This document shows positions 9,435 to 64,000 of a stretch of DNA of 64,000 bases, piece by piece (the first letter of the stretch is position 1; every line of letters starts with the position of its first letter). The notes under the pieces are model-generated. The model did no database searches and was not told where the DNA came from. It saw only the letters and a list, made by a program, of their open reading frames with translations. A program made the position numbers and the translations under genes. Source of the stretch: Armatimonadota bacterium (GTDB taxonomy: Bacteria; Sysuimicrobiota; Sysuimicrobiia; Sysuimicrobiales; Humicultoraceae); contig JAVKHP010000001.1 of NCBI GenBank assembly GCA_031459855.1, positions 62,001-126,000 on the forward strand. Reading direction: 5' to 3'.

Positions 9435-9435
9435 G

Positions 9436-12086: not shown

Positions 12087-13120
12087 GGCGCCTGCGGCCC
12101 GCGGCCGGCGGCGTCCGCTGCCGCCAGTTTGGCTTCCAAGGCCGCCACCCGCTCCAGCAGCTCGGGCAGGCGGCGCAGCGCAGCCTGCAGGCGCAGCTCC
12201 TCGCGGTGGTCGCGGGCCGGATACCCGGACACCGTGGCACCCGACGGCACGTCCCGCGTCACGCCCGCCTTCCCCCCAACGCGGGCGGCAGCACCGATCG
12301 TGACGTGGTCGCTGACGCCGACCTGCCCGGCCAGCACCGCACCGGCACCGATGGTGACGCTGCCCGAGATCCCGACCTGCGCCACGATGAGGCACCCCGG
12401 GCCGATGGTGACGTTGTGCCCGATCTGCACGAGGTTGTCGATCTTGGTGCCGCGGCCGATCCGGGTCTCGCCGAGCGTGGCGCGGTCGACGCAGGTGTTC
12501 GCGCCGATCTCCACGTCGTCTTCGACGACCACGCGCCCGAGGTGGGGGATCTTGAGGGCCCCCTCCTCGGCGGCGGCGTACCCGAAGCCGTCGGCCCCCA
12601 GCACGGCACCCGCGTGCACGACCACCCGGTCGCCCAGCACAGCACGCGGGTAGAGCACCACGCCGGGGTAGAGCACGCAGTCGGCGCCGATCTCCGCCTG
12701 CGCCCCCACCACCACTCCTGCATGCAGCACCGTGCGCGGACCGATCCGGACGCCCGGCTCGATGGCCACGAAGGGACCCACCGTGACATCCGCGCCCAGG
12801 CGGACGTCGGGGGCGATCACCGCGGTGGGGTGCACGCCCCGACCCACCGCCGGTACCGGCGCGAACGCCGCCAGCACCCGGGCGAACGCCGCGCGGATGT
12901 TGGCGGCGCGCAGGGCCGGCTTGCGCACCGGCGGCGCGTCGGCGGCGACGAGCAGCGCGCCCGCCGCCGACGCCTCGGCGTCGGGCAGCCGGCGGAGGTC
13001 GGCAACGTACACCAGCGCCGCGGGATGCGCGTGGGCCAGCTCGGTGACGGCGTCGATCTCGACGTCGCCCGGGCCGGACAGCTCCGCGCGCGCCAGGCGG
13101 GCGAGGTCAGCGAGCTTCAT
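12083..13120 (-). CDS. lpxD: UDP-3-O-acylglucosamine N-acyltransferase
   Basis: The 345-aa enzyme adds the N-linked acyl chain in lipid A synthesis. It has the N-terminal uridine-binding domain ([20 protein letters not shown] to about residue 95), then the hexapeptide beta-helix ([20 protein letters not shown] onward). The signature [19 protein letters not shown] and the catalytic His of [12 protein letters not shown] follow, with a C-terminal coiled helix ([17 protein letters not shown]). Length and motif order match the family. It follows the OmpH-like genes by 12 bases and overlaps the next lipoprotein gene by four, continuing the coupled run. Confidence 0.95.
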
Positions 13121-13132
13121 GGACGGCCCCGG

Positions 13133-13591
13133 CTACTTGAGCCGGTCGATGACCTCCTGGGTGATGTCGACCGTGGCCCCGGGCTGGCTGTAGATGACCG
13201 GGCCTTTCACGATCACCCCGCGCAGCCGCTTCTCGCGGACGATCTGCTGGATGACGTCGCGGATCGCCCGGTTGAGGTCCTCCTCGAGTTGGGCCCGCAA
13301 CGCCTGCAGCTCCCTGATGTACTGCGCCCGCCGGGCCTCGAGGTCCTCCCGCGGCAGCTGCCGCGCCAGCAGCTGCAGGTCGGTGGTCATGGCGCGCTCC
13401 CGCTCGTCCAGTTCCCGCTGGTAGCGCAGCGCGAGCGCGCTCTCCGCCAGCAGCCGCCGGGTCTCCACGAGGCCCACGCGGCCGGCCGTGCACCCCGCGA
13501 CCAGCACCGCCACCACCAGGCCTGCGGCCAGCACCCCGCCGCGCGCCAGCACGCCCCGGGCCCGCATGCGGTCACGCCCCCTGCCGCTCAT
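13133..13591 (-). CDS. OmpH/Skp-like periplasmic lipoprotein (third of three)
   Basis: The 152-aa product has a basic N-terminus and a lipobox (VAVLVAGC, Cys about 34), followed by a helical, charged region and the closing RGVIVKGPVIYSQPGATVDITQEVIDRLK-type segment, which matches the C-terminus of OmpH/Skp proteins. Skp is a trimeric periplasmic chaperone for outer-membrane proteins; a lipid-anchored version would work at the membrane surface. Its ATG overlaps the stop of the longer OmpH-like gene by four bases. A start eight codons later is also possible. It lacks the long tentacle coiled coil of its neighbour. Confidence 0.72.
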   Translation of the reverse strand: MSGRGRDRMRARGVLARGGVLAAGLVVAVLVAGCTAGRVGLVETRRLLAESALALRYQRELDERERAMTTDLQLLARQLPREDLEARRAQYIRELQALRAQLEEDLNRAIRDVIQQIVREKRLRGVIVKGPVIYSQPGATVDITQEVIDRLK

Positions 13592-50428: not shown

Positions 50429-50477
50429 CACCCGGCGCCATTGCGCGCGGAGAAGCGCGCAGACAAGGGAGAAGACG

Positions 50478-51164
50478 ATGAAGCCTGCAAGGAGGGCGGA
50501 CCTCGCAGCTGCTCTCGCGACCGTCGCCGCTGTTGCACTGCTCCTTTCCACCGCGGGCGCCCCTGTGGGGGCGCAGGTCCGGGTGGAGGGGGACGCGCAG
50601 CTGTGGCAGGAGGTCCTTGAGGCCCTCAACCGCCTGTCCACGGCGCACACGTACCGGATGCGGACCGGCCCGGTGGTCGTGGAGGTCGACCAGCGCAGCT
50701 CACCCCCCTCGAGCCGCATGGTGGTGTCCTCAGGGGGCGTCCAGACCGAGATCGTGCAAGTCGGGGACCAGGCGTGGATGCTGACCGCCGGTATCTGCCG
50801 GCTGCTCCCCCGCCAGCAGTCCGCCGCGATGGCACCCACCCGCCCGCCTCGGCCGCAGGACATCACGGGCGTGGTCCGGATCCTCGGACGGACACCCGGC
50901 GCCCACACGACCCCACGGGGGGAGGTCCGTCCCGTCTACGTGTATGAGTACGAGTCCGATGTCGAGCAACCCGGCGCGGGTCGCGTGCGCGCGCGCACCC
51001 GGCTCTCGGTGGACCGCGAGACCACGCTGCCGCTTCGCATGGCCCTGGAGCCCCTGGGCGCCACCCCCGGATCTTCCACACGGCCCGGTACCTGGGAAGC
51101 GGACTTCTACGACTTCGGCGCGGACATTCGGATCACGGTTCCCCCGGAGTGCCCGCGCTCTTGA
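50478..51164 (+). CDS. Uncharacterised exported protein (LolA/LppX-like fold possible)
   Basis: The 228-aa protein has a signal peptide (LAAALATVAAVALLLSTAGAPVGAQ split over core and cleavage region) and a soluble part with VLEALNRLSTAHTYRMRTGP, YVYEYESDVE and WEADFYDFGADIRITVPP. The pattern of alternating strands, with a GTWEADFYDFG end, resembles LppX/LolA-type lipid carriers, but this is a weak guess. ATG 50478 follows AAGGGAGAAG. Confidence 0.6.
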   Translation: MKPARRADLAAALATVAAVALLLSTAGAPVGAQVRVEGDAQLWQEVLEALNRLSTAHTYRMRTGPVVVEVDQRSSPPSSRMVVSSGGVQTEIVQVGDQAWMLTAGICRLLPRQQSAAMAPTRPPRPQDITGVVRILGRTPGAHTTPRGEVRPVYVYEYESDVEQPGAGRVRARTRLSVDRETTLPLRMALEPLGATPGSSTRPGTWEADFYDFGADIRITVPPECPRS

Positions 51165-51446
51165 GAGCAGACGTCAGCACTAGGCCATTGCTTATCAACT
51201 GAGCAACGGAGCGCATGCGCGTTCCCGGGTACTGCTGGACTATCGCCTTGGCGTACAGCCATCTGCTGGAGGGTCCAAATCCGTTCTGAGTTTGTAGGAT
51301 CATCACCGATCCCCGAATCACTTCACGCACGTTGACGACACCTCAAAGGTATTCGCCCTTTTTCCTACGTCTAGAGTAGGCGCAACGCTCTACTAGCGTC
51401 CCTGGGTCGTTAGAGGCTAGCTGTCCGAACGCACGCTACCTTACTC
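51165..51446. other. AT-richer intergenic segment at the left edge of the defence island
   Basis: This stretch is visibly poorer in GC than the flanks. It holds no clear gene. A 65-codon frame on the minus strand (51133-51330) has unremarkable codon use and no ribosome site. The minus-strand string GTTGCTCAGTTGATAAGCAA near 51206-51187 looks like a tRNA D-arm, but no acceptor or T arm is visible. It may be a degenerate integration site. Confidence 0.4.
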
Positions 51447-51491
51447 GTCGCAAAATCCCCTCATTTCGGGTCTCGATCTTTCGAGGTGATG
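51447..51491. repeat. CRISPR-repeat-like element, left copy
   Basis: The sequence from GTCGCAAAATCCCC through CTCATTTCGGGTCTCGATCT to TTCGAG.TGATG recurs at 60413-60455 with only two inserted A bases and one mismatch. On the minus strand it begins with CTCGAAAGATCGAG, a small hairpin, and ends in GGGGATTTTGCGAC; the right copy ends in GGGGATTGCGAC, a 3' end typical of type III/I CRISPR repeats of Thermus. It lies directly after the last gene of the DISARM-like operon. No second unit is nearby. Confidence 0.7.
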
Positions 51492-51493
51492 TG

Positions 51494-52423
51494 TCATGGG
51501 CGCAATGTGTCGGCCTCCGCCAGGGCGGCGGCCACGCTGGCCACCGTCTTCGCAGACGTGCGCTCCCACACCTCCCGCAGGTGCTGGCCTAGCCGGGTCG
51601 GCGTCTCGAACTGCCGGTCGGCCACCATGTCCAGCAGGGTCACGTCGGGGGTGTGCCCGATGGCCGTCACCAGCACGCACGGCAGCTGCAGGGCCGCTCT
51701 GGCCACCGCGGGGTCCTCGAAGACCTCCAGGCCAGACCCGCCGCCCCGGACCACGGCCAGCACGGGAGGGGCGTCGTCGACGGCCCGGGCCAGGGCAGCG
51801 GCCACCTCCGCCGCCGAGCCCAGGCTGGCCCGCCGCCACTCCAGCCTGCAGGCCTCCGCGGCGGACCCCAGGGCAGCCAGGATGTCGCGGTCCACCACGC
51901 TCTCCAGGCCTGTGAGAAGCACGACGCGGGGCTTCTCACCCCGGTAGAAGGCGGAGGCCAGCAGACCATCGAGGTCCCGGCTTTCCCTCGCCGCCCGGGC
52001 TCGAAGGATCTCAGCCCGGGCGAGGTCCTGCTCGGAGAGCGCTGGTCTCTCCACGCCCATGAGCTCGGCCACGTGGAAGACCAGCCGCAGCCCCTCGCCG
52101 CTGTCCTGCGCCTGCACCCGCAGGACGCCTTTGAGCACCGCTGTCTGGCCCTCGCGGAGGGCGCCGCGCAGGGAGACCGGAATGCGGATCGAGATCTGCC
52201 TGCCCGGGACGTATTCGTCCTCCAGGCGGTCGTAGCAGAAGCCGTTGTACTCGCGACCGCTGCCGGGCCGCCAGACGCCCTTCAACAGGACCGGCGTGGC
52301 GTACCTGGAGATGCGCAGGCTGGCCTCCAGGGCGAGGAGGAGAGAGGAGGGGGTGTGGATTGAGCCCGCGCTCGATTCCCCCTGCACACTCTCGAATGTT
52401 CTTCCCTCCTGCCTTCCGTCCAT
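51494..52423 (-). CDS. Shortened exonuclease VII large-subunit-like nuclease
   Basis: The 309-aa protein has an N-terminal OB-like region (about 35-125, GREYNGFCYDRLEDEYVPG) and an XseA-type catalytic core with VLAVVRGGGSGLEVFEDPAV and CVLVTAIGHTPDVTLLDMVA DRQFETPT (residues about 250-275), as in XseA. E. coli XseA is about 450 aa; the long C-terminal coiled coil that binds XseB is absent, and no xseB is present. It could cut single-stranded DNA in the defence response. It is the last gene of the drm operon, 38 bases after drmC. I know of no XseA-like gene as a standard DISARM part. Confidence 0.8.
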   Translation of the reverse strand: MDGRQEGRTFESVQGESSAGSIHTPSSLLLALEASLRISRYATPVLLKGVWRPGSGREYNGFCYDRLEDEYVPGRQISIRIPVSLRGALREGQTAVLKGVLRVQAQDSGEGLRLVFHVAELMGVERPALSEQDLARAEILRARAARESRDLDGLLASAFYRGEKPRVVLLTGLESVVDRDILAALGSAAEACRLEWRRASLGSAAEVAAALARAVDDAPPVLAVVRGGGSGLEVFEDPAVARAALQLPCVLVTAIGHTPDVTLLDMVADRQFETPTRLGQHLREVWERTSAKTVASVAAALAEADTLRP

Positions 52424-52461
52424 GTCGCGTCGACCTGCGCCTCGTCAGCCACGTGCCTGCT

Positions 52462-52953
52462 TTACGGCGTTCTTCCCGTGGCCAGACGGTCGATGAGGGC
52501 GGCGATCTGCCATGCGGGGTCACCCTCCACGAGGAGCGCGATCTCGAGGTTGGCAACCAGGCCGCCCCAGGTGAGGTTGGCCGACCCGACGATGGCCCTC
52601 CGGCGGTCCGCCACGACCGCCTTCGCGTGGAGCAGGCCGGTGCCCCGCGCCGCAAGGTCGACCAGGGTCATATGCGGGTAGCTCCCCCGCAGACGGGCCA
52701 GCCTTGCGGCCGTCTCGGCGTCCACGCTGCTGGTCGACGAGACCACGCAGATGACCCGTACGCCAGCCGCCAGGGCGCGCTCCACGTGGTCCATCAGGAT
52801 CCCGGAACCCGGGCCCACCCGGTAGGCCGCGATGTGGAGTTCCGATGCGGCCGACCGGATGAGCTCCACGAGAGCTGGCTCGATGCCCCGGATTGAGCCG
52901 CCCACCAGCTCCGGCCCGGTCGCCAGCACCGTGACCATGGCGGGGACGCTCAT
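52462..52953 (-). CDS. drmC: DISARM protein DrmC (phospholipase D-like)
   Basis: The 163-aa protein has one PLD (HKD) motif: LLHAKAVVADRRRAIVGSAN followed by LTWGGLVANLEIALL, with His109, Lys111 and Asn126. The N-terminal half has the PLD-like strand LHIAAYRVGPGSGILMDHV. DISARM DrmC has this fold and is dispensable in some systems; PLD-type enzymes with one motif act as dimers. The ATG overlaps the drmB stop by four bases (ATGA). Confidence 0.87.
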   Translation of the reverse strand: MSVPAMVTVLATGPELVGGSIRGIEPALVELIRSAASELHIAAYRVGPGSGILMDHVERALAAGVRVICVVSSTSSVDAETAARLARLRGSYPHMTLVDLAARGTGLLHAKAVVADRRRAIVGSANLTWGGLVANLEIALLVEGDPAWQIAALIDRLATGRTP

Positions 52954-54698
52954 GCGTTCTCCAGCAGGATCTGCCTGTCCAGCCAGAGATTCCGGTGCTC
53001 GCAGGAGGTCTCCGGAAGAACCGTGCACGCGTAGCACGACGCCCCCGACGTCGACCCAGCAGAGAAGCGGCGCTCGTCGCACAGGCTTCCATTCGAGCAG
53101 TACAGCATGGCGTCCACAGCCAGATCCACAATCTCCTGGAACCGCGGCGCCAGGGCCACCAGTCCTCCCATGGACGCGTCCGTGCCGGGCTGGGCGGTGT
53201 ACAGGACCAGGGCCCCGGTGGCACCTTCGGACTCCTCGCGCAGGTAGACGCGCTCGCGTATGGACGCGGCTCCGTAGCCGGAGTGGATCGCGATTGCGCG
53301 GATGAGTAGGTGCGAAAGGGTGTGCCACCAGACGAACACGGGGTGCAGCTCGACGTGTGCGGGCGTGCAGACGAGTTCGTCATAGCGCCGGTCAGTTCTT
53401 GCCCGGTTCCATTCGCGCGCCGCATTTCCCTGCAGCGGCGGGTGGCGGAGGCCCGGGTGCGCGTCCGAATCGAGTGTGATGAGGATTCCCTCTCCCGGAT
53501 AGTCCAGACCGGGATACCACTTTGTGCCGCCGGCGTCCCTCCACGAGACATCGACGCGGGTCGCGCTGCGCTGGGGATCCACCATCCGGAAATAGCCCCG
53601 TTTGACCATGAGGACGCGCAGCCGGGGGATGGGTACGGCCCTGAGGCGGACCCCGGGGCCGTCCGCGGCTCCGGCACGCTGCGGGGTGATCTCAAAGCCA
53701 GCATCGGGGTCCCACGCCGCTCCGTGTGTTGCGGCCGACAGCAGGGCCTGCATCTCCGCATGGAGGAGTTCTTCCCGCGACCCGGGGGGCGGTTCGAGAA
53801 GCTCCAGGCAGGCGCGGATCACCCGTCTCGGGTCGTCCGAGGCCGCCCGGCGGATGTTCTCCACGGCGTCCCAGAGACGCGGCTGGCGGGTTGCCAGCCT
53901 TTGCAGCCTCCCGGTGAAGTCCTTCAGCCAGCTCTCCTCTCTGCCGGGGACCGGCGCGTCCAGCGATTGCAGGACGGCCATGATGGCCGGTATCTGAAGG
54001 AGCTGGTGCAGGCGTGTGTGCGCGGGTGGGAGCGTGAAGATGGCTTCGATGTCGGGGACGTAGAGATTGCTGGCCTGACGCTGCACAAGCACGGCGTGAT
54101 GGTCACACCCCGTGCGCGTGGGAGGATCCTCGGGCCGCTCGCGCTCGGGAAACCGACCGCTGCAGGGCCACCTGCCCTCGTACAGCCGGGCGAGCGAAGC
54201 ATCCGCCCCGCATAGCGGGCAGCGGACCCGCAGGTCGCGGATGCGGCTGACGCCGCCGAACCAGTGGAACCAGTCTCTGTGCTGGCACTGAGAGCCACGG
54301 CCGTGGATCAGCGAGTGCCAGCTGACCTCGTCCAGGTGACCCCTGCTGCAGGCCATGAGGAAGCGGACCGCCTGCACCCTCCTTTTCCCGCGCCCCCCGG
54401 GCCCGCACTCGGGACAGTCACGCGCGTAGAGGATGGAGTGCTCGGTGCAGATTGCCCACTTGGGGAAGGGCCGGGTGGGCCAGGGAGGATCGTGGACACC
54501 CGGAAGCCGGTACACCCGGCCGTCCAGCATGGCGGCCAGTCTGCCGGCAGAGATCTCCCTCTCCTGTGGATCCACCCGATCGGGGAAGTACCCGCAGTCG
54601 GGGTGGAGGATCATTCTCGGACCGTGAATGCTTTCCAGAAGCGCACCGGGCCCGTAAGTGATGAGGAACTGCGACTGGCGGACCTGCTGGCGGCCCAT
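52950..54698 (-). CDS. drmB: DISARM protein DrmB (DUF1998)
   Basis: The 582-aa protein starts with QSQFLITYGPGALLESIHGP, the characteristic DrmB opening. It has cysteine pairs that bind zinc (CTEHSILYARDCPECG; RVRCPLCGADAS), WWHTLSHLLIRAIAIHSGYG, and the DUF1998 end CDERRFSAGSTSGASCYACT with further cysteines. DrmB partners the helicase DrmA to form the core DISARM complex that senses incoming DNA ends. ATG 54698 has a GGAGGAAG site, 20 bases after drmA. Confidence 0.92.
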   Translation of the reverse strand: MGRQQVRQSQFLITYGPGALLESIHGPRMILHPDCGYFPDRVDPQEREISAGRLAAMLDGRVYRLPGVHDPPWPTRPFPKWAICTEHSILYARDCPECGPGGRGKRRVQAVRFLMACSRGHLDEVSWHSLIHGRGSQCQHRDWFHWFGGVSRIRDLRVRCPLCGADASLARLYEGRWPCSGRFPERERPEDPPTRTGCDHHAVLVQRQASNLYVPDIEAIFTLPPAHTRLHQLLQIPAIMAVLQSLDAPVPGREESWLKDFTGRLQRLATRQPRLWDAVENIRRAASDDPRRVIRACLELLEPPPGSREELLHAEMQALLSAATHGAAWDPDAGFEITPQRAGAADGPGVRLRAVPIPRLRVLMVKRGYFRMVDPQRSATRVDVSWRDAGGTKWYPGLDYPGEGILITLDSDAHPGLRHPPLQGNAAREWNRARTDRRYDELVCTPAHVELHPVFVWWHTLSHLLIRAIAIHSGYGAASIRERVYLREESEGATGALVLYTAQPGTDASMGGLVALAPRFQEIVDLAVDAMLYCSNGSLCDERRFSAGSTSGASCYACTVLPETSCEHRNLWLDRQILLENA

Positions 54699-54717
54699 GG
54701 TCTTCCTCCGCGACCCG

Positions 54718-57700
54718 TCAGCCGGTGCTCACGGGCACCGTGTCCTCGACGTCCCGGAGCGACTGGGGTGCCATGTCGTAGACGGCACGACCGGCATTCC
54801 TGTGTTCGGCATCGCCCAGCACCACGCTGTGCTGCGGGGGATCCCCGAAACAGTACTCGACGTAAACGAGGTCATGCCACGCCGCCGACGCCTGAGCCCA
54901 ACGGTCGAGAGCGGCGTCCAGGATCTGCCGGACGTGTCCGGGGTCAGGACGTCTGAGGCGCGGCTGTGCCGCGGCGCGGGCCTCAAAGGTCCCGGCAACC
55001 CACGCCTCGTCCTGGCGGCGGGAGCGCATGTCGCCTGCCGTTGTGTCCACATGCCAGGGGTGACCCGACTCCCTGGAGCACCGGAGCAGGGCGACGGCGG
55101 CCGGTCCGCCGGCCCGCCCGGCCACCTGCGGGGAGAAGGGCATCACGCTCACGGGCTCCACGAAGGCGTGAAGCCTGCGGTGGAACCCAATGAAGAACTC
55201 GTAGTGGCTGAGGTCCCTCGGCCTCGTCACCCGCAGGAAGGTGACCACCAGTCCGCCGCGGCCGCGGCCCACGCGCCCGGTGGCTTGGACGTAGGCCGAG
55301 GTTGTCTTCGGCTGGCCGGCCACAAACATCAGGCTGAGTCTCCGGACATCCACCCCGGTTCCGAACATGGAGGTGGTCAGCAGGATATCCGGGGCGCTGT
55401 CGGGCAGGCGCCGCTCCAGCCGGCTGAGGATTTCGGGCAGCTGGGTTGATCCGACACGGCTCGACAGCTCTATGAGGCCGTCCTCCGTGATGGGGCGCGG
55501 GTTCCCGTGGCCGGCGAGCGCGCCGCGGATCCATTCCTGGACGTCCTGCCGGCACAGGCTCCTGGCGCCGGCGAGCTCACGGATCGCGTTGAAGAACGCC
55601 ACCAGGGTCCACCACGGATCAGCGGTGCTGTCTCCCAGGTCCAGGCGGACCTCGTGAGCGGACTGGAGAAGCCGCGCCATGATCCTGAACACCGGCGTCA
55701 GGGGGCCGCGACCGGGAGCGCAGACGCCGACGTAGAGGCGACCGGGCGGCCCCTCCTCAAGCGGGTGCGGCTCCCTCTCGCGGAGGAAGAAGCGGTCGTC
55801 CCAGCTCAGGCCGTGCGGCGGAAACACGTAGAGCCTCCTGAGGAAGAGGGATTCCACCTGGTCCTGCGCCTGGCGGATGGTGGCGGTCGACGCTATGTAC
55901 TTCGCGTGGTACTCGGAATCGCTGCCCGCAGTTCGCCTGGCGCAGAGCTTGTCGACCACCGCCTCGTAGAGGCCGAACATGCTTCCGAGGGGGCCCTCCA
56001 GGAGGTGAAGCTCGTCCTGGATGATGAGCTGCGGAGGTTCGAAGGGAGCCACAACCTGTGCGAGTGCCTTGAGCACGGCGGGGCTTTCGGTTCCATCCCG
56101 GTAGTACCCCAGGAACGGATGGAACCGGTCGACGTTGCCGAATAATGAGGCCGCCCGCGGTTCCCAGGACAGCCTCGCGAACTTGTCCGCCGTTGCGATC
56201 ACCACCGAGGGGCAGCGGCGGTAAATCTGCTCGTCCACGGTGAGAGCCGGGATGGGCACCGACACACTGAGGTAAGTCCTGTGACTGCCGGAGCCCGGGC
56301 GCACGAAGGCAGGTGCGGTGCGGAAGGCGAGGCCGTCCGGCGAGGTCACGGCCTGGCCACGGGGCAACACCAGCTGGTAGACCTGTGTGGCGCCCGTGTC
56401 CGCACCTGGGCCGGCGCTCGCGTCACACGGGACGCCCTCCGCCCAGAGCACCCCGTCATTCAGCGGGCACCGCGGCCGCGGGCAGAAGATGTCGAAATCG
56501 ATTTCGTGAGCGCCACCCTTGGGCCCCGTGATCCTGCGGATGAAATAGCCGGGGCGCCCGGCGTGGGCGGTCAGCTGTACCCCGGACCCCTTCAGCACCG
56601 TCTCCAGCCAGTCGTGAATCTCGTCTGCCAGGACGTCCCGGCCGCAGGACAGGCGGACCTCCAGAGCAGCGGCGGTGCTGTCCGCCAGCCGAGTGAGGGA
56701 GACGTCGAGGACCTCAAAGGCGGGGTGGCCTGGCGATCGTCTCGCTGCCTGCAGGATCCGCTGGGGGCTCCGCGCTTCCACCAGCCAGGAAAGTGTGTGC
56801 ACGCCCTGGGGAAGCGTGTCGAACGCCAGGACGCCGCCGCACGCCGGGCACTCCAGCACCTGAGCCGGCTCCCCCCGGTGGGCTCCACCGCCCGACGGCT
56901 TCTTCAGGGCGTACATGGCCCCAGGGTTCGAGGGCGGACCTGAACCGAGATGGTTCGGCGTGACGTTGCCGCCCACCCAGAGTCCTATGGCGAACCGCGC
57001 CGTGCCCCAGATGAATTGATCGCGGATGTTGCACCGGGCAGGCCTCCAGCCCACCGGCCCGCCGCCCCTCAGCCCGAGTACCCGGAGGTACTCGCAGGCG
57101 GTTATCATCCGGAGGGCGCGTCGGAACTGCTGGATGGTCAGAAGCCGGAGGGTGTACCTGGAAATCACGGCGGTGCCGGCCCCGTTGCCGACCCTCCGGC
57201 GCAGCGCGCGCCTCCGGCGGTACGCGATGGCGAAGGCCATCAGCGCCAGGTAGGCCTCCGTCTTTCCCAGTCCGGTGGGGACCCAGAGTAGGTCCAGGGC
57301 GTCCCTGTCGTAAGAGTCCGGCCTGACGATCGACTCCAGCACGCTCAGGATGAACGCGAGCTGGAACGGCCTCCAGCGGAAGGGTCCGGCCATTTCGCCG
57401 CCGGCCCAATGGTGCTGCAGGGACACCGCCCGGCAGGAGAAGCAGAAGGCAAGGCGGGCCTCCCTGTCGCTCAGCAGGAGCTCCAGCCCGGCACGCATCC
57501 GGCGGGCCGCGTCGCCGGCCTGGTTGAACAGATGCCAGACCGCATCGTGGTACCCGCGGCTCTCCAGGGCGATCCGATCGGCCTCCTGCTTCCACTCCGC
57601 GACCCGCTGCTCGAAGAGGCGGACGAGCGGCTCAAGGGCGCGGCGCAGCTCTTCCGGCTCCCAGCACTCGGCGAGAACATCCGCGCGCAGCTCGGGGGTG

Positions 57701-58719
57701 GATGGCAGGTCCTCCGGCCAGCCGGCGTCGGAGGTGAGCACCGCGTAAACCGGAATGAACTCGCTCCGGACGTGCGGGGCGGTGAACCTTTCCCGGATCT
57801 CCCGCGCCAGGACGGCACCATCCGGCCAGGTGAGGGCGCGGAGGTGTTCCAGCTGCTCCGGAGGAGCGTCAGTTCCGGGATCGCGCTCGGGATCCACCTC
57901 CCTCCAGACGGCGGAGCACATGTGGCCCCGCGCCCGAATCGCTCTGTGACGGTGGAGGAGCTCGAGGACCAGTGCCTCCCGGTCAGCACCGCCGGTCATC
58001 GGAGTCCGCATGGGCGACGGCTCCGGATGCGACAGCACCCGAAGCTGCGGCTGGAAGATGTGGTCCGCGGGGTCGGTCCGGGAGGACCGGCGCTGCAGCC
58101 GGTTTATCAGGTACAGCGTGACCGTCGCTCTCGTCCGCCGTTCCCCGGGAACCCACCGCGTCCGGATGTGCAGGGAAAGCTCGCAGTCGGGGTGCTGCTC
58201 CGGGAGCGCTCCGTTGGGGCCCAGGCATACGACCCGGGCCTCGCCAATCCCGACCGTCACATCGCCGACCCAGACCCGCGGGTGACGCCTCCACTCGCGG
58301 GGCTTCTGCCGGTCATCCTCCGGCAGGTACCGCGCCCAGGTGACGCACAGATCCAGGGACACCCGGGAGTCGGTCTCGACCTCGAAGGTGATCCCCATCC
58401 CGCAGGGCCGGGCAGCGGGGTCGAGCTCCGGTGGTGCCACGAAAGCGCCGGGTTCTCCGGCATCATCCGTGTCGTCCTCAGCTGACAGAAACTCCACCTC
58501 GTTCACCGGGATGGCCTGCTCGGCTTCGGGGTCACGGGACCGGGGGACATCTCCTTGTTCCGGCCGGGGTGCCAGGACCGCCGTCAGGTACAGCGCACAG
58601 GGGTCGTCCCGCCGGACGAGCTCCTCAGGCCCATCCCGCGGTCCGAGCAGGTCCCTGACAAGGTCCGTCAGGATTCGGAGCCTCGTGCCGTCCGCGAAGA
58701 CCCCTCCGGATCCGGACAT
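54718..58719 (-). CDS. drmA: DISARM helicase DrmA
   Basis: The 1333-aa SF2 helicase has an N-terminal DrmA domain (LRILTDLVRDLLGPRDGPEE, CALYLTAVLAPRPEQGD), Walker A LLWVPTGLGKTEAYLALM (about 478-495), a DExH-type box LIIQDELHLLEGPLGSMFG, motif III IASTATIRQAQDQ, and motifs V/VI ILLTTSMFGTGVDVRRLSL and AYVQATGRVGRGRGG. Cysteine pairs (CPACGG, CPRPRCP) may bind zinc. DrmA with DrmB restricts phage DNA. ATG 58719 lies inside the end of the glycosylase gene (about 50-base overlap). Confidence 0.93.
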   Translation of the reverse strand: MSGSGGVFADGTRLRILTDLVRDLLGPRDGPEELVRRDDPCALYLTAVLAPRPEQGDVPRSRDPEAEQAIPVNEVEFLSAEDDTDDAGEPGAFVAPPELDPAARPCGMGITFEVETDSRVSLDLCVTWARYLPEDDRQKPREWRRHPRVWVGDVTVGIGEARVVCLGPNGALPEQHPDCELSLHIRTRWVPGERRTRATVTLYLINRLQRRSSRTDPADHIFQPQLRVLSHPEPSPMRTPMTGGADREALVLELLHRHRAIRARGHMCSAVWREVDPERDPGTDAPPEQLEHLRALTWPDGAVLAREIRERFTAPHVRSEFIPVYAVLTSDAGWPEDLPSTPELRADVLAECWEPEELRRALEPLVRLFEQRVAEWKQEADRIALESRGYHDAVWHLFNQAGDAARRMRAGLELLLSDREARLAFCFSCRAVSLQHHWAGGEMAGPFRWRPFQLAFILSVLESIVRPDSYDRDALDLLWVPTGLGKTEAYLALMAFAIAYRRRRALRRRVGNGAGTAVISRYTLRLLTIQQFRRALRMITACEYLRVLGLRGGGPVGWRPARCNIRDQFIWGTARFAIGLWVGGNVTPNHLGSGPPSNPGAMYALKKPSGGGAHRGEPAQVLECPACGGVLAFDTLPQGVHTLSWLVEARSPQRILQAARRSPGHPAFEVLDVSLTRLADSTAAALEVRLSCGRDVLADEIHDWLETVLKGSGVQLTAHAGRPGYFIRRITGPKGGAHEIDFDIFCPRPRCPLNDGVLWAEGVPCDASAGPGADTGATQVYQLVLPRGQAVTSPDGLAFRTAPAFVRPGSGSHRTYLSVSVPIPALTVDEQIYRRCPSVVIATADKFARLSWEPRAASLFGNVDRFHPFLGYYRDGTESPAVLKALAQVVAPFEPPQLIIQDELHLLEGPLGSMFGLYEAVVDKLCARRTAGSDSEYHAKYIASTATIRQAQDQVESLFLRRLYVFPPHGLSWDDRFFLREREPHPLEEGPPGRLYVGVCAPGRGPLTPVFRIMARLLQSAHEVRLDLGDSTADPWWTLVAFFNAIRELAGARSLCRQDVQEWIRGALAGHGNPRPITEDGLIELSSRVGSTQLPEILSRLERRLPDSAPDILLTTSMFGTGVDVRRLSLMFVAGQPKTTSAYVQATGRVGRGRGGLVVTFLRVTRPRDLSHYEFFIGFHRRLHAFVEPVSVMPFSPQVAGRAGGPAAVALLRCSRESGHPWHVDTTAGDMRSRRQDEAWVAGTFEARAAAQPRLRRPDPGHVRQILDAALDRWAQASAAWHDLVYVEYCFGDPPQHSVVLGDAEHRNAGRAVYDMAPQSLRDVEDTVPVSTG

Positions 58720-59408
58720 TCCTCCACACCCCCCTTCATGCAGGCGTCCTCCAGGGGGCACCGGGAGCACAGCGGCCCGCGCGGGCGGCACACCGTTGCC
58801 GCCAGGTCGATCAGGGCCCAGTTGAACTCCCTGGGCCGGCGCCGGTCCAGCAGGTGCTCCAGGAGCGCGGCCACCTCGCGGCTCCGCCGCGGCTCTCCCC
58901 GGCACCCGATTGCGAAGAAGCGAGACACAACCCTGGCCGTGTTGGTGTCAACGACCGCCACGGGGCGTCCGAATGCGAAGCACGCGACCGCCCTCGCCAC
59001 GTATTCCCCGACTCCCGGAAGCGCCCGGAGCGCCTCGGCGTTCGCGGGCACCCTGCCACCGGCCTCGCGCCCGAGCAGCCTCCCCGCGCGCACCACGTCA
59101 CCGGCTCGCCAGTGGAGTCCCAGGGGTCTCAGCACCCTCTTCACCGACCCCGGGGGCGCGTCTGCAAGGGACCGCGGGGTGGGGAAGAGCCGCAGGAAGC
59201 GCCTGAAAACCGGCACGACCTGCTCGGCTCGGGTTCTCCTGAGCATCATCTCGGCCATGAGCACGTGGTACGGATCGCGGGTGCGCCGCCAGGGGAAGCG
59301 CCTGCCCGCTGTTTCCCACCAGCGGATCAACCTCCGCCGGAACAGACGGGTGACCGCGGGCGGGAGTGGCACGGGTGGTCGGACCGCACCCCCCGCGGAT
59401 GCGCTCAT
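58668..59408 (-). CDS. MIG-type DNA glycosylase (probable T:G mismatch-specific)
   Basis: The 246-aa HhH-GPD glycosylase has LMAEMMLRRTRAEQV (as in MIG, where MutY has LQQTQ), the helix-hairpin-helix LPGVGEYVARAVACFAFG with Tyr136 at the position of the MIG catalytic-pocket Tyr, catalytic Asp154 in VVDTNTARV, and an Fe-S site Cys207-x6-Cys214-x2-Cys217-x5-Cys223. In Methanothermobacter, Mig sits beside a cytosine-5 methyltransferase and removes T from T:G pairs left by deaminated 5-methylcytosine. Here it follows a C5 methyltransferase with a four-base overlap. Substrate is inferred; MutY-type A:G activity is possible. Confidence 0.85.
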   Translation of the reverse strand: MSASAGGAVRPPVPLPPAVTRLFRRRLIRWWETAGRRFPWRRTRDPYHVLMAEMMLRRTRAEQVVPVFRRFLRLFPTPRSLADAPPGSVKRVLRPLGLHWRAGDVVRAGRLLGREAGGRVPANAEALRALPGVGEYVARAVACFAFGRPVAVVDTNTARVVSRFFAIGCRGEPRRSREVAALLEHLLDRRRPREFNWALIDLAATVCRPRGPLCSRCPLEDACMKGGVEECPDPEGSSRTARGSES

Positions 59409-60367
59409 GACCGTGGCCCGCTCAGGGTGCGCACCACCGCCTCCATGACCGGAGGGCACACGGCGTTGCCCAGGAGGTGGATGCGCTGCCTGCGTGTGCC
59501 GTGACGGAGCACGAAGGAGGCGGGAAGGCCCATGGCTGCCCGGAGCTCCTCCGGTTGGAGCATCCGCATCAGCGGTGTTCCGGACTCCCACTTCACGATG
59601 GCGAAACGGTCGCGGGTGGTCACCGTCCGCAGCGGAACGTCGAGCCGCTGCCAGCCCCCGGCCCCATCCGTCCCATAGTACACGACCAGGAACGGTTCTC
59701 CGGGTCCGAGGGTGCGAATGGCCCGCATGGCGCGTTCCACCGTCGCCCGCGCGCGGCCCGGGGCGAACAGGGGAGTCCAGGCGTAGCGGCCGTCGAGGTC
59801 CACGACGCGCAGCGCCGGCACGAAACGGCGGCACCTCGGGATCACGGGAGGAGGCACCCGTTCGAGGTCGCACATGATGAACAGTCTCCTGCGCGACTGG
59901 GGCACGCCGAAGTCCCTCGCGTTCAGGATCTGCTCCCTGACCCGGTACCCGATGGAGGCGAGGCTTTCGAGCAGGCGGGGATACAGGTGCCAGCGTCGCA
60001 TCTGCGGCACGTTCTCGATGACGACCCAGCGGGGCTTCAGGACGCGGGCGAAGCGCACCACCTCGAAGGCTGTCATGGAGCTGTCGTCCGGGATACACCA
60101 CCCGCCCCTCGCGGGCGTGTGAGCACGGCACTCGGGGGAGCCGACGATCAGGTCCACGGCACCGACCTCGCGGGCGACCTGCCCCGCGCTGACGCGCCTC
60201 AGGTCGCAGCAGCGGGCGGCAGCCTCCGGGAAGTTGTCCCGGAACGTGCGGATCGCGAGGTCCCAGCGGTCGAACCCGGCCACAATCCTCGCCCCGGCGG
60301 CACGCGCTCCCACGCTTGAGCCGCCGGCCCCGCAGAACAGATCAACCGCGCGGATCACGCAGGCCAT
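59405..60367 (-). CDS. drmMII: DISARM cytosine-5 DNA methyltransferase (DrmMII)
   Basis: The 320-aa enzyme has motif I VDLFCGAGGSSVGARAAG, motif IV DLIVGSPECRAHT with catalytic Cys80, motif VI VVIENVPQM, motif VIII FGVPQSRRRLFIM and motif X HLLGNAVCPPV. The usual PCQ of motif IV is replaced by PEC, as in some relatives. It protects host DNA at DISARM sites; the recognition sequence cannot be deduced. It is the first gene of the operon, with a short leader that includes the CRISPR-like repeat. Confidence 0.92.
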   Translation of the reverse strand: MACVIRAVDLFCGAGGSSVGARAAGARIVAGFDRWDLAIRTFRDNFPEAAARCCDLRRVSAGQVAREVGAVDLIVGSPECRAHTPARGGWCIPDDSSMTAFEVVRFARVLKPRWVVIENVPQMRRWHLYPRLLESLASIGYRVREQILNARDFGVPQSRRRLFIMCDLERVPPPVIPRCRRFVPALRVVDLDGRYAWTPLFAPGRARATVERAMRAIRTLGPGEPFLVVYYGTDGAGGWQRLDVPLRTVTTRDRFAIVKWESGTPLMRMLQPEELRAAMGLPASFVLRHGTRRQRIHLLGNAVCPPVMEAVVRTLSGPRS

Positions 60368-60412
60368 CTCCGCCCCACGGTTGCAACAAGCAGCCCTCTC
60401 CCCTTTTTGTTT

Positions 60413-60455
60413 GTCGCAATCCCCTCATTTCGGGTCTCGATCTTTCGAGCTGATG
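60413..60455. repeat. CRISPR-repeat-like element, right copy
   Basis: This copy lies 45 bases upstream of the drmMII start and about 65 bases after the stop of the CARF-HTH gene. It reads GTCGCAATCCCC, then CTCATTTCGGGTCTCGATCT, TTCGAG, CTGATGG. It matches the left copy at 51447 in the same orientation. The minus-strand hairpin CTCGA/TCGAG could also serve as an operator for the operon or for the adjacent HTH protein. Confidence 0.7.
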
Positions 60456-60519
60456 GAAGGGGCGCATACCCTTCTCATCGGAGCCGGGCGGGCGCTCGCA
60501 TGGGACGTCCTCCTCATTC

Positions 60520-61386
60520 TCACTGGGAAGTGTTTCCCATCTTCTGCCTGGACGCTCCCACCAGCTCGAAGTACGGAGCGAACTCGGCCACCAGCAGCCC
60601 TCGTCCCGCGGGCGGCCCCTGGAAACCCGACCAGTCCTGCAACTTGGCATACACGGCGGTGAGCTGATTGGCCACGGTGCGGACGCTGCGGTGAAGGCGC
60701 CGGGCGATGGCGGCGTTGTCCAGGCCCTGGCAGGCCAGATGCGCCACTTCGCGTTCTGCGGGGGTTAGCCAGCGCTCCACGAACTCTCGCCGTCTGCGCA
60801 TGCGTTCGCCCCTCACGATCTCTTCGTACCTGCGGATGGCCTCTGCGGGATCGTCGATCTCCGCGAGGGCCGCCAGCATGACCGCGGAATCCGTCCAGCG
60901 GAGCACCGGGATGGGAATCAAGCGGGCGGTCTTCCCAGGCGCCAGATGCATCTGGCGCGGAGCCCCCGGCGTCCAACCCTCGCTCAAGAGGTGCCACGCA
61001 CGGTCGTCGGGGCCGAACAGGAGCTGTGCCACGACCATCGCCGCAACGCTCATCACCTTGCGGCCACCGGCCAAGCACAGGTGCACGGCCCCGTGGGAAC
61101 GTTTGAGATCACGGACGGCCAGGTACAACACCGAGAGAAGCCGGCGAACGTCGGCCTCGGTGCGAAAATCGTCCAGGCCCCCAGCCTGGCCGCGCACTGG
61201 GATCGGCCGCAGCCGGATGGCCACATAGCGACCCGCCCTGAACTCCCGACGAATGCTGCGAACACCCTGCAGGACAGCCGCCGAGGTGGTGTGGACCACG
61301 GCCACTTCGCGGATGGGTCGGCGCCGTGCGAGGAGCAGGTCGAGGGCGATCGTAACGACCTGCGGTTCGTGGCCCAGAGTCGCCAC
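60520..61386 (-). CDS. CARF-domain (NE0113-type) protein fused to a LuxR-type HTH
   Basis: The 288-aa protein starts MATLGHEPQVVTIALDLLLA and has VAVVHTTSAAVLQGVRSIR, then LCLAGGRKVMSVAAMVVAQL, LFGPDDRAWHLL and SEGW. The opening ATLGxxPxVVT and the AGGRKxMS...LFGxxDRxxH string match the CRISPR-associated NE0113 family (Cas_NE0113/CARF). Residues about 206-250 form a LuxR/GerE HTH: LTPAEREVAHLACQGLDNAA, IARRLHRSVRTVANQL. CARF domains bind cyclic oligoadenylates made by type III CRISPR systems. A fusion with a LuxR-type HTH suggests a second-messenger-controlled regulator. GTG 61386 follows GGCGAGG. Confidence 0.8.
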   Translation of the reverse strand: MATLGHEPQVVTIALDLLLARRRPIREVAVVHTTSAAVLQGVRSIRREFRAGRYVAIRLRPIPVRGQAGGLDDFRTEADVRRLLSVLYLAVRDLKRSHGAVHLCLAGGRKVMSVAAMVVAQLLFGPDDRAWHLLSEGWTPGAPRQMHLAPGKTARLIPIPVLRWTDSAVMLAALAEIDDPAEAIRRYEEIVRGERMRRRREFVERWLTPAEREVAHLACQGLDNAAIARRLHRSVRTVANQLTAVYAKLQDWSGFQGPPAGRGLLVAEFAPYFELVGASRQKMGNTSQ

Positions 61387-61490
61387 CAGCGCCTCGCCGG
61401 TGGTGCCTGCGCGGCGGGCCGGAAGAGAACGTGGCGCGCGGAACGCGACGAGCGTGTCTCACCCCCTGAAGGGCAGGCCGATGCGGACCA

Positions 61491-61577
61491 GCCGTGTCCC
61501 TGGACGCAGAGAAGCCGCGTAGGGGCCCGCAGGATCTGGTCGGTCGCCGCCGTGTCCCTGCACGCAGAGAAACCGCG
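61491..61577. repeat. Paired direct repeat D (29 bp, period 58)
   Basis: Copies at 61491-61519 and 61549-61577 read GCCGTGTCCCTG, (G/C)ACGCAGAGAA, (G/A), CCGCG, differing at two positions. They lie 47 bases beyond the end of trpB2, in the 237-base gap before the CARF-HTH gene. No gene is seen in the gap. Confidence 0.65.
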
Positions 61578-61623
61578 CGCGGCACATCCCGTACTGTGCT
61601 CCCCTATGCCCCGACGCCGCGTC

Positions 61624-62982
61624 TCAGGGCTGAATCGCCGCCAGCTCCCGCATGGCGGCCCGGATCGCGTCCTCCGGATACGCGAAGTCCTCGAGCTCCC
61701 CTGCCAGGTGCTTCTCGTAGGCGGCCAGGTCGAAGTGGCCGTGGCCGGACAGGCCGAACAGGATGACCCGCGGCCGGCCCTCTTGCTTGGCCTCCAGCGC
61801 TTCGTCGATCGCCTTGCGCACGGCGTGGGCCGATTCGGGCGCGGGGATGATGCCTTCGGCCCGGGCGAACTGCACCGCAGCGTCGAAGACCGTCCGCTGC
61901 CCGTAGGCCACCGCCTCGACGTAGCCGTGGTGGTAGAGCAGGCACAGCAGCGGGGCGTCGCCGTGGTAGCGCAGGCCACCCGCGTGGATCGCCGGGGGGA
62001 CGAAGGTGTGGCCCAGCGTGTACATCTTGAGCAGCGGCGTGGTGGCGGCGGTGTCGCCGAAGTCGTAGAGGTAGTCGCCGCGCGTCAGCGTAGGGCACGC
62101 CTGGGGCTCCACCGCCACGAACCGCACGGCCCGCCCGCGGAACTTCTCGGGCATGAACGGGAACGCCAGCCCGGCGAAGTTGCTGCCGCCGCCGACGCAG
62201 CCGATGATCACGTCCGGTGCGTCTCCGGCCAGCTCCATCTGCTTACGGGCCTCGAGGCCCACCACGGTCTGGTGCATCAGCACGTGGTTGAGCACGCTGC
62301 CCAGCGAGTACTTGGTGTCATCGTGGGTGGCGGCGTCCTCGACCGCCTCGCTGATGGCGATGCCCAGGCTGCCGGGAGAGTCCGGATCTTGCGCGCGAAT
62401 CGCCCGGCCGGCCTGCGTCCGGTCGGTGGGGCTGGGCAGCACCTCGGCGCCCCAGGTCTGCATCATGACCTTGCGGTAGGGCTTCTGCTCGTAGGAGACC
62501 CGCACCATGTACACGGTGCAGGCCAGGTCGAACAGCCGGCACGCCAGCGCCAGCGCGCTGCCCCACTGCCCGGCGCCCGTCTCGGTCGTCAGGCGACGGG
62601 TACCTTCCTGCTTGTTGTAGAACGCCTGGGCCACGGCGGTGTTGGGCTTGTGGCTGCCGGCGGGACTGGTGCCCTCGTACTTGTAGTAGATGCGCGCGGG
62701 CGTGTCCAGGGCGCGCTCGAGCCGCCGCGCCCGGTGCAACGGCGTCGGCCGCCACAGCCGGTAGACGTCGCGCACCGGCTCGGGGATCTCCACCTCGCGC
62801 TCGGTGCTGACCTCCTGCATGATGAGCGCCATGGGAAACAGCGGCGCGAGGTCTGCCGGGCCGATCGGCTGCTTGGTCCCGGGGTGGATGACCGGCGGCA
62901 GCGGGACCGGCAGGTCGGCGGCGATGTTGTACCAGGCCTTGGGAATGTCGTGCTCGGACAGCAGGATCTTGGTCGCGTCCAT
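61624..62982 (-). CDS. trpB: Tryptophan synthase beta chain, TrpB2 type
   Basis: The 452-aa PLP enzyme is the TrpB2 form (longer than the 400-aa TrpB1): [19 protein letters not shown] start, [20 protein letters not shown] with PLP Lys112, [16 protein letters not shown], and the phosphate loop [18 protein letters not shown]. TrpB2 condenses indole and serine and often works without TrpA, for example as an indole salvage enzyme. No other trp gene is in the window. ATG 62982 has a GGGGGG-type site. Confidence 0.93.
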
Positions 62983-63028
62983 CGCGTCCCCCCTTGACCC
63001 GCACGCCCGCCGTCGCGCAACCGTCGCG

Positions 63029-64000
63029 TCAGGGTCGCGGTGGGTCGTGCGGGGCATCTGCGCTGTGAGGAGTGGGGTTCGGGCCGGAGGCGTCGGCTCC
63101 TGCAGCAGGACCCTCGGGGCCGAGGCGCACGAGGGCGACGTCCGCCGCTGCTGGTGCGCCGGGAGCCTCCGGTCCGGAGGCCGACGGCGCCTCCTCGGCG
63201 GCGGATGGCGTGGGCGGTGCGGGCGCCTCCTGCGGTTGGGAGCGCGCCGCGTCGAGATCGAGCGGCTGCCCGGGACGCCGGACGCGCACCTGCAGGGCGC
63301 GCAGGCGATTGAGCACCGCCGCCACCTCGTAGGGCCGCGGCAGCGCGTAGTCGCCCGATCCGCGTTCTCCCTCCGAGAGCAGGAGCAGGCCGCCGGCCTC
63401 GAGGTCGGCGAAGACCCGCGCCAGGATCTCGGCGATGGACGCCGCGCCGTCGATGTAGCCCTTCTCCACGGCGTAGAGGATCGCGTCGCCGGCCGCGCGC
63501 GCCTGGCCGGGCTCCACGAGTTGCGGCAGGCCGGCCAAGTCCACGCTCTCGCGCCCTACCACCAGCGCGCCGCGTCCGCGCATCTCGCTGGCGATCCGGC
63601 GCCCCCGCAGGCCGTTGAAGCCGCGCGGCAGCGGGCATCGGGGTGCGGGGACGGCGACCGTCGCCCGCCGTGCTGCCCGCGGTGCGCCCAGAGCCACCGC
63701 CTGCTGTGCCGCCGCGGTGGCCGCCCGCGGCTGAAAGGCGTCCATCACCAGCACGGTGTCGGCGACGGCGAGGAAGTCGCCGAGCCCCGCGGTGGCGACA
63801 ATCGAGGAGATCTCCAGGTCCTCCCACAGGGGACGCACCACGTCCACCAGGCGGGTCAGAGGATCGTCCGCCGGCGGGACGAGCGCTTCCATGCGCGCGT
63901 CGCGGGTCAGCAGCGCGGCCGGCAGGTCGTCCTCGTCGAACACGAACAGGCTGGTCCCCACCTCGAGGGCCTCGGCAAGGGACGCCACGACCGACAGCGC
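63029..64000 (-). CDS. ABC-class ATPase (PF09818-like), 5' truncated
   Basis: Only the C-terminal 323 residues are inside the window; the frame runs through position 64000. The segment [28 protein letters not shown], then [20 protein letters not shown] and [17 protein letters not shown] matches the predicted ABC-class ATPases (ABC_ATPase). Positions at its centre are the Walker B-like acidic VFDEDD. It ends in a Pro/Ala-rich tail. The family's role is not established. It lies upstream of trpB2 by 46 bases. Confidence 0.8.

What the first reader, a model, noticed from the sequence alone, without database searches (positions are those of the whole stretch)
51447..60455. DISARM-like operon bracketed by two CRISPR-repeat-like direct repeats
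The two elements, about 43 bp, are the same way round and nearly identical (a two-A insertion and one mismatch). One lies just after the last gene and the other just before the first. On the minus strand they end in GGGGATTGCGAC or GGGGATTTTGCGAC, like Thermus type III CRISPR repeats. The operon between them is lower in GC than the envelope genes. This may mark a unit that moved by recombination between repeats, or a Cas locus that was replaced.
Basis: partly seen in the sequence, partly recalled or inferred. Interest (0 to 1): 0.85.

Follow-up and report, generated by a model that had tools for sequence, protein, structure and literature searches.

The report
DISARM operon inside a CRISPR remnant
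A virus-defence operon (DISARM) sits between two leftover CRISPR repeats, directly behind a regulator gene and control site that in related bacteria head CRISPR genes, so one immune system seems to have taken over the remains, and perhaps the switch, of another.

Summary
Two direct repeats (45 bp at 51447-51491, 43 bp at 60413-60455) flank a complete DISARM operon of the drmMII type. They share an exact 32-bp core, the longest exact repeat in the window, and are the only copies in the 3.19-Mb genome. They are very probably CRISPR repeats. They align with the 36-nt Thermus thermophilus array repeat (0 of 2000 shuffles as good). Across 43 genomes of the phylum, the best two matches to Rfam CRISPR-DR8 are copy 2 and one element in genome G021. 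Both lie about 100 bp behind orthologous CARF-HTH genes.

Its orthologs head a complete type III-A cas operon (G011), a cmr1 gene (G014), or a lone repeat without cas genes (G021). A tandem palindromic operator just behind CARF is conserved in six loci. Here it lies upstream of DISARM, which no other genome of the phylum has. No Cas10 was found in this genome.

Best reading: DISARM entered or replaced a decayed type III CRISPR locus, and CARF-HTH may now control it. The CRISPR origin is well supported, the route of entry is inferred, and the regulation is untested.

The parts
51447..51491 (-). CRISPR-repeat-like element, copy 1 (distal; altered 3' end GGGGATTTTGCGAC)
   Evidence: 32-bp core identical to copy 2
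51494..52423 (-). XseA-like protein, 309 aa (exonuclease VII large-subunit core behind an N-terminal extension); the closest plasmid relatives are short XseA-like proteins of Thermus and Allomeiothermus plasmids (one of 305 aa), so it is probably complete
52462..52953 (-). DrmC, PLD-type nuclease, 163 aa
   Evidence: PADLOC DrmC 1.5e-40; PLDc_2 3.9e-15
52950..54698 (-). DrmB (MZB domain)
   Evidence: PADLOC DrmB 1.5e-165
54718..58905 (-). DrmA helicase; ORF from the first GTG, and the profile match starts at residue 75, so the true start is probably near 58680
   Evidence: PADLOC DrmA, 1374 bits
58668..59408 (-). HhH-GPD DNA glycosylase; best solved relative is the G/T-mismatch glycosylase 1kea, then MutY
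59405..60367 (-). DrmMII, C5-cytosine methyltransferase; first gene of the operon
   Evidence: PADLOC DrmMII 4.3e-105
60413..60455 (-). CRISPR-repeat-like element, copy 2 (proximal; canonical 3' end GGGGATTGCGAC)
60502..60538 (-). tandem palindromic operator GGGAAACACTTCCC-N9-GAGGAGGACGTCCC (23-bp register, followed by ATGCG); overlaps the CARF stop codon
   Evidence: same arrangement in six CARF-HTH loci
60520..61386 (-). CARF-HTH (GerE/LuxR-type HTH) transcription regulator, ortholog of type III CRISPR regulators
61624..63057 (-). conserved PLP-enzyme gene, right border of the variable site
50475..51164 (+). left-border gene; a 28%-identical homolog lies directly next to the PLP-enzyme gene in relative G003

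Best explanation
The two repeats are leftover CRISPR repeats of a decayed type III CRISPR locus. What remains of it is an orphan CARF-HTH regulator gene, its downstream tandem operator and two repeats; the cas genes are gone. A complete DISARM operon (drmMII, glycosylase, drmA, drmB, drmC, xseA-like) now lies between the two repeats, where the array or cas operon would be. The most likely route of entry is homologous recombination at CRISPR repeats: a DISARM-carrying molecule bearing a similar repeat crossed into the resident repeat, or the array shrank around an insertion. The operator that in relatives stands before the cas operon now stands before DISARM, so CARF-HTH most likely controls DISARM transcription. 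Shown: repeats, operon content, CARF orthology with type III heads, conserved operator, absence of DISARM in relatives. Inferred: the recombination route and the regulation.
For: Repeat identity: local alignment with the T. thermophilus array repeat scores 17 (GATCGAGACCCGAAATGAGGGGATTGCGAC against GATTGAGCCCCG---TAAGGGGATTGCGAC), reached by 0 of 2000 shuffles; that repeat is present in up to 40 or more copies on Thermus plasmids. Rfam CRISPR-DR8 over 43 genomes: the two best hits are copy 2 and the G021 element, both downstream of CARF-HTH orthologs 80% identical to each other; the other two hits lack any such context. The G021 element is followed by 15 bp that match, with one mismatch, that genome's own 30-nt array repeat (0 of 300 shuffles), so that site is a CRISPR remnant. 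Copy 2 also matches the array repeat of L132, which lies next to a CARF-HTH/cas10/csm locus (94.7% over 19 nt, E 0.057). CARF orthologs head a full III-A operon with cas6, csm1-5, cas1 and cas2 in G011, cmr1 in G014, and small ORF plus cas6 plus truncated cas10 in G018. Operator pair: 0 of 500 shuffles as good in the window, G021, G018b and G014, 2 of 500 in G018a, 8 of 500 in L104. No Cas10 in the genome. DISARM is unique to this genome in the phylum. The site is a defence hotspot in relatives.
Against: No array with this repeat survives anywhere in the genome, and no cas pseudogene fragment is detectable beside the elements. G011, which has the intact III-A operon, has no match to GGGATTGNRAC, so its own (unseen) array must have another repeat. 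Arrays near most CARF-HTH loci are of a different 30-nt class. In G018 no such element lies between CARF and the cas genes (in G011 part of that stretch is an assembly gap). Only one other genome (G021) carries the element behind CARF. Regulation of DISARM by CARF rests on position and conservation alone. The absence of Cas10 rests on one Pfam model in a 97.7%-complete genome.
Confidence: 0.62

Rival explanations
1. The elements are attachment sites (attL/attR) of an integrative unit carrying DISARM; G021 shows the unoccupied site with one copy.
For: Direct repeats exactly flank the operon. DISARM is absent from all relatives. G021 has one copy without DISARM.
Against: No recombinase or integrase among the genes between the repeats. 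The sequence resembles CRISPR repeats of Thermus and L132. The flank beyond G021's copy is a fragment of another CRISPR repeat and is not homologous to the window's flank.
Confidence: 0.12
2. The repeats are functional signals of the operon itself (a regulator-binding or RNA-processing element in the leader and another at the 3' end), duplicated for control rather than left by a CRISPR array.
For: One copy lies in the 5' untranslated region and one directly after the last stop codon. Both can form two small hairpins. In G021 the element likewise follows the CARF-controlled promoter region.
Against: The fold is not better than shuffles (z about -1.2). No terminator-like T run. Other DISARM loci lack such pairs. 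The CARF loci with cas genes whose stretch behind CARF can be read (G018, G014) lack the element.
Confidence: 0.16
3. A solitary repeat unit (SRU) on a virus or plasmid that carried DISARM recombined with a resident CRISPR repeat, which gives two direct repeats around the imported DNA. This is a specific version of the best explanation.
For: SRU-mediated integration into CRISPR loci has been proposed (PMC8616872). The closest plasmid relatives of the xseA-like gene are on Thermus and Allomeiothermus plasmids.
Against: No SRU of this sequence was found in viral contigs (one scan, GAGACCCGAANNNNGGGGATTGNRAC, 0 hits) or plasmids. No replication or phage gene remains between the repeats.
Confidence: 0.3
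4. Chance: the likeness to CRISPR repeats and the closeness to CARF are coincidental, and the pair is an ordinary duplication.
For: CRISPR-DR8 matches are below the Rfam gathering score (24.7 against 39 bits).
Against: The two best DR8 hits of 43 genomes both lie behind CARF orthologs. Thermus alignment 0 of 2000 shuffles. 30-nt repeat fragment beside G021's copy.
Confidence: 0.07

Closest known systems
DISARM of the drmMII type (drmMII-drmA-drmB-drmC; Ofir et al. 2018, summarised in PMC9142583)
   Same: All four core genes present in one strand-consistent operon.
   Different: Adds an HhH-GPD (G/T mismatch type) glycosylase and an xseA-like gene, lies between CRISPR-repeat-like elements and behind a CARF-HTH gene; DrmC is short (163 aa).
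Type III-A/III-B CRISPR-Cas loci headed by a CARF-HTH regulator (G011/L092, G014/L095, L132)
   Same: Orthologous CARF-HTH gene. The downstream tandem operator is shared with G014; in G011 that stretch is an assembly gap. CRISPR-like repeats in the same orientation (L132).
   Different: No Cas10 found, no array; DISARM stands where the cas operon stands.
Thermus thermophilus 36-nt CRISPR repeat (GTTGCAAGGGATTGAGCCCCGTAAGGGGATTGCGAC)
   Same: 13-nt identical 3' end (AGGGGATTGCGAC) and a similar CCC...GGGG core.
   Different: The 5' half differs; here two isolated copies 9 kb apart, not an array.
Solitary repeat units of mobile elements (Faure et al. 2019, cited in PMC8616872)
   Same: Single CRISPR-like repeats that could recombine with a resident array.
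   Different: The imported DNA is a defence operon, with no virus genes left.
Csa3-type CARF-HTH regulators responding to cyclic tetra-adenylate (PMC8844856, PMC8699464)
   Same: CARF domain fused to a DNA-binding domain, controlling defence genes.
   Different: GerE/LuxR-type HTH, CARF3/Cas_NE0113-like; ligand unknown; target operon here is DISARM.

Membership tests
DISARM (drmMII type) | DrmA helicase and DrmB (DUF1998/MZB) adjacent | tested here: met
   PADLOC DrmA 1374 bits, DrmB 1.5e-165
DISARM (drmMII type) | C5 methyltransferase DrmMII | tested here: met
   PADLOC DrmMII 4.3e-105
DISARM (drmMII type) | PLD nuclease DrmC | tested here: met
   PADLOC DrmC 1.5e-40, with HAKAVVAD...GSANLT motif
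DISARM (drmMII type) | phage restriction activity | not testable with these tools
   needs expression and phage challenge
CRISPR array | at least three repeats with regular spacers of 25-50 bp | tested here: not met
   only two copies, 9 kb apart, in the whole genome
CRISPR repeat (by descent) | sequence and structure match to a known CRISPR repeat family | tested here: inconclusive
   best DR8 hit of 43 genomes but below the gathering score; Thermus repeat alignment 0 of 2000 shuffles
CRISPR repeat (by descent) | genomic context of CRISPR-associated genes | tested here: met
   CARF-HTH ortholog of type III regulators 65 bp away; same pairing in G021
Type III CRISPR-Cas system | Cas10 and csm or cmr genes | tested here: not met
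   no Cas10 palm domain in the genome; no type III-A cas gene of G011 found in the window
CARF-HTH regulator | CARF domain plus DNA-binding HTH | tested here: met
   Cas_NE0113 1.2e-42, GerE 3.6e-7, PADLOC CARF3 2.8e-107; ring-nuclease SSO2081 and NarL chains in PDB
CARF-HTH regulator | ligand response and binding to the operator | not testable with these tools
   operator conserved in six loci, binding untested
Integrative element with att sites | site-specific recombinase encoded within the unit | tested here: not met
   no such gene among the six between the repeats

The most novel reading that the evidence does not exclude
DISARM has been rewired into a CARF-dependent circuit: a type III CRISPR regulator with its own operator now switches an innate defence operon on in response to a nucleotide signal, after DISARM entered the CRISPR locus by recombination at its repeats.
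Probability: 0.3. Interest if true: 0.82.

Novelty: new variant of a known kind. Interest (0 to 1): 0.62.

Why it matters
It would be a traceable case of one prokaryotic immune system taking over the locus, and possibly the regulation, of another. It makes two open questions testable: whether CRISPR repeats act as recombination sites that let defence cassettes swap, and whether CARF regulators of type III CRISPR control non-CRISPR systems such as DISARM when no Cas10 is found.

Tried and rejected
DrmA as single query in genome contigs found no relative. I first suspected that the xseA-like gene was cut by the repeat; short homologs on Thermaceae plasmids (305 aa in Allomeiothermus) argue against it. 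I suspected that the 30-nt arrays of G021 and G018 would show the same repeat; they do not. Region G021:C5 near a weak CARF hit holds no array. Other DR8 hits (G007, G024) lack any CARF or CRISPR context and look like chance. No repeat remnant at convincing significance was found on the distal side 51165-51446. No sigma-70-type promoter or terminator match was found near the elements. No DISARM gene was found in 36 other CARF-HTH loci. One viral scan and a plasmid search with the element found nothing meaningful.
Full report
OBSERVATION. The two elements exist as described. On the minus strand, which is the operon's strand, copy 2 (60413-60455) reads CATCAGCTCGAAAGATCGAGACCCGAAATGAGGGGATTGCGAC and copy 1 (51447-51491) reads CATCACCTCGAAAGATCGAGACCCGAAATGAGGGGATTTTGCGAC. 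They share an exact 32-bp core; the next longest exact repeat in the window is 21 bp. Shuffles give an expectation of 0.00. The whole genome (3.19 Mb, 4 contigs, 97.7% complete) contains only these two, even with 3 mismatches.

THE OPERON. All genes are on the minus strand, in transcription order: DrmMII methyltransferase (59405-60367), an HhH-GPD glycosylase (58668-59408) closest to the G/T-mismatch enzyme 1kea and then to MutY, DrmA, DrmB, a short PLD-type DrmC (52462-52953) and an XseA-like protein (51494-52423). This is a complete drmMII-type DISARM with two extra genes. The XseA-like gene is probably not cut by copy 1, because its relatives on Thermaceae plasmids are also short (305 aa in Allomeiothermus). 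DrmA is absent from all 42 other genomes of the phylum at E 1e-30. The closest DrmA proteins on plasmids are only about 35% identical, and none of seven such DISARM loci examined has a flanking repeat pair.

THE SITE. Right of the unit lies a conserved PLP-enzyme gene (61624-63057, 78-89% identical in the family). In G003 a homolog of the left-border gene lies directly next to it, and in G006 the site carries ordinary transporter genes. In G008 the same place holds a type I restriction system with a Fic protein, in G010 HsdM- and Fic-like genes, and in G002 a PIN/Phd toxin-antitoxin pair. So this is a defence hotspot, and the whole stretch CARF-repeat-DISARM-repeat (about 51165-61620) is variable DNA.

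At 60520-61386 lies a CARF-HTH protein (Cas_NE0113 CARF plus GerE-type HTH; PADLOC CARF3 2.8e-107). By profile it resembles ring-nuclease CARF domains and the NarL DNA-binding domain. Orthologs (59-80% identical) occur in five further genomes of the phylum. In G011 the gene heads a complete type III-A locus: small ORF, cas6, csm1 (cas10), csm2, csm3, csm4, csm5, a second CARF gene, cas1, cas2. In G014 it precedes cmr1. In G018 it precedes the small ORF, cas6 and a truncated cas10 that is followed by fragments of a PDC-S37 defence gene. Thirty more relatives, mostly Firmicutes, were fetched from GTDB genomes, several with cas1, cas6 or cas10 alongside. Only the window pairs CARF-HTH with DISARM: none of 36 other loci has any of the DISARM genes.

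THE ELEMENTS ARE PROBABLY CRISPR REPEATS. (a) The T. thermophilus array repeat is confirmed as an array on Thermus plasmids. It aligns with copy 2 as GATCGAGACCCGAAATGAGGGGATTGCGAC against GATTGAGCCCCG---TAAGGGGATTGCGAC, a score reached by 0 of 2000 shuffles. (b) CRISPR-DR8 of Rfam over all 43 genomes gives as its two best matches copy 2 and one element in G021. Both lie about 100 bp behind orthologous CARF-HTH genes and share GAGACCCGAANNNNGGGGATTGCGAC. Both are below the curated threshold, so the family match alone would not suffice; the shared context is the argument. (c) Directly behind G021's element lies GTTCGGAGCCTGCCT, 14 of 15 identical to the start of that genome's own 30-nt array repeat (0 of 300 shuffles). 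(d) L132 (Bipolaricaulota) has a 25-copy array of a 37-nt repeat ending AAAGGGATTGCGAC, immediately upstream of CARF-HTH-cas10-csm2-5-cas1-cas2, and copy 2 matches it. (e) The distal copy 1 is altered at its 3' end, as is often seen for the last repeat of an array (general knowledge, not tested here). Against: no array survives, no cas debris is visible, and G011, with the intact cas operon, has no repeat with this ending.

THE OPERATOR. Just behind the CARF stop codon, in the window and in five other loci (G021, G018 twice, G014, Anaerolineae L104), stand two 14-bp palindromes of the form GGGAA-N4-TTCCC in a 22- to 24-bp register, followed in most by ATGCG. Shuffles reach the observed score 0 of 500 times in four loci, 2 in one and 8 in the weakest. 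In G011 this stretch is an assembly gap and cannot be judged. In G018 the operator lies before the cas-operon genes, in G014 before cmr1, in the window before copy 2 and DISARM. It is the natural candidate for the binding site of CARF-HTH. In the 64-kb window no other place scores as well. The consensus was read from these same loci, so the shuffle counts are somewhat optimistic.

HOW IT MOST LIKELY WORKS. DISARM itself should act as described for DrmAB (PMC9142583): the methyltransferase marks self DNA, DrmA-DrmB load on unmethylated DNA with single-stranded 5' ends, and nucleases such as DrmC are recruited. The glycosylase probably repairs T/G mismatches that arise when 5-methylcytosine deaminates (inference from its closest solved relative). 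New here is the control: CARF-HTH, bound to its operator, would repress or activate the DISARM operon depending on a nucleotide ligand. Csa3, a different CARF-HTH, is known to bind cyclic tetra-adenylate (PMC8844856, PMC8699464). Since no Cas10 was found (one model), the ligand may come from another enzyme, or the regulator may be fixed in one state. These steps are inferred.

HOW IT AROSE. G021 shows CARF, operator and a single element with no cas genes, so loss of cas genes with a repeat left behind has happened elsewhere. In the window two repeats remain with DISARM between them. Homologous recombination between a resident repeat and a similar repeat on incoming DNA would give this picture; such recombination has been proposed for solitary repeat units of viruses (PMC8616872). 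Insertion into an array followed by array shrinkage would give it as well. The present data do not separate these.

VERDICT. The recombination route and the regulatory link remain hypotheses. In a full-text search of the open-access library, the papers returned for DISARM together with CARF and type III CRISPR showed nothing in title, abstract or term counts that describes this arrangement; their full texts were not read.

Noticed in passing
L094 (G018 C1) 8430-13427: Second example of a CARF-HTH-led type III locus that was overwritten: cas10 breaks off after about 126 aa and is followed by fragments of a PDC-S37/Hhe-like defence gene (DUF4011, AAA).
   Followed up: partly
window 51165-61620, and L040, L041, L042, L043: The stretch between the PLP-enzyme gene and an iron-dependent repressor is a defence hotspot in this family: type I restriction with Fic, HsdM/Fic-like genes, PIN/Phd toxin-antitoxin, or no defence gene.
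   Followed up: partly
L096 741-1151, L094 9361-9768, L092 9638-9904: A small ORF with signal-peptide-like start and no Pfam match lies between CARF-HTH and cas6 in three type III loci of this phylum.
   Followed up: no
L091 7989-8003 (G021): Fragment of the genome's own 30-nt CRISPR repeat directly behind the lone 37-nt-type element: remains of two repeat classes at one site.
   Followed up: yes
L132 7869-9702: 25-copy CRISPR array with a 37-nt repeat ending GGGATTGCGAC immediately upstream of a CARF-HTH/type III-A locus in a Bipolaricaulota genome.
   Followed up: partly
window 58668-59408: HhH-GPD glycosylase related to a G/T-mismatch glycosylase, placed between drmMII and drmA and overlapping drmMII by four bases; possibly repair of deaminated 5-methylcytosine, or a restriction glycosylase.
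   Followed up: partly
L105-L116, directly downstream of CARF: In many Firmicutes loci the gene after CARF-HTH encodes a small conserved protein (NFAHPLT...EPLLINLPSLN) not identified here.
   Followed up: no
L169 3469-4254 (Allomeiothermus silvanus plasmid pMESIL02): A short xseA-like gene lies about 4.4 kb from a gene annotated CRISPR-associated protein Csx16 on the same plasmid.
   Followed up: no
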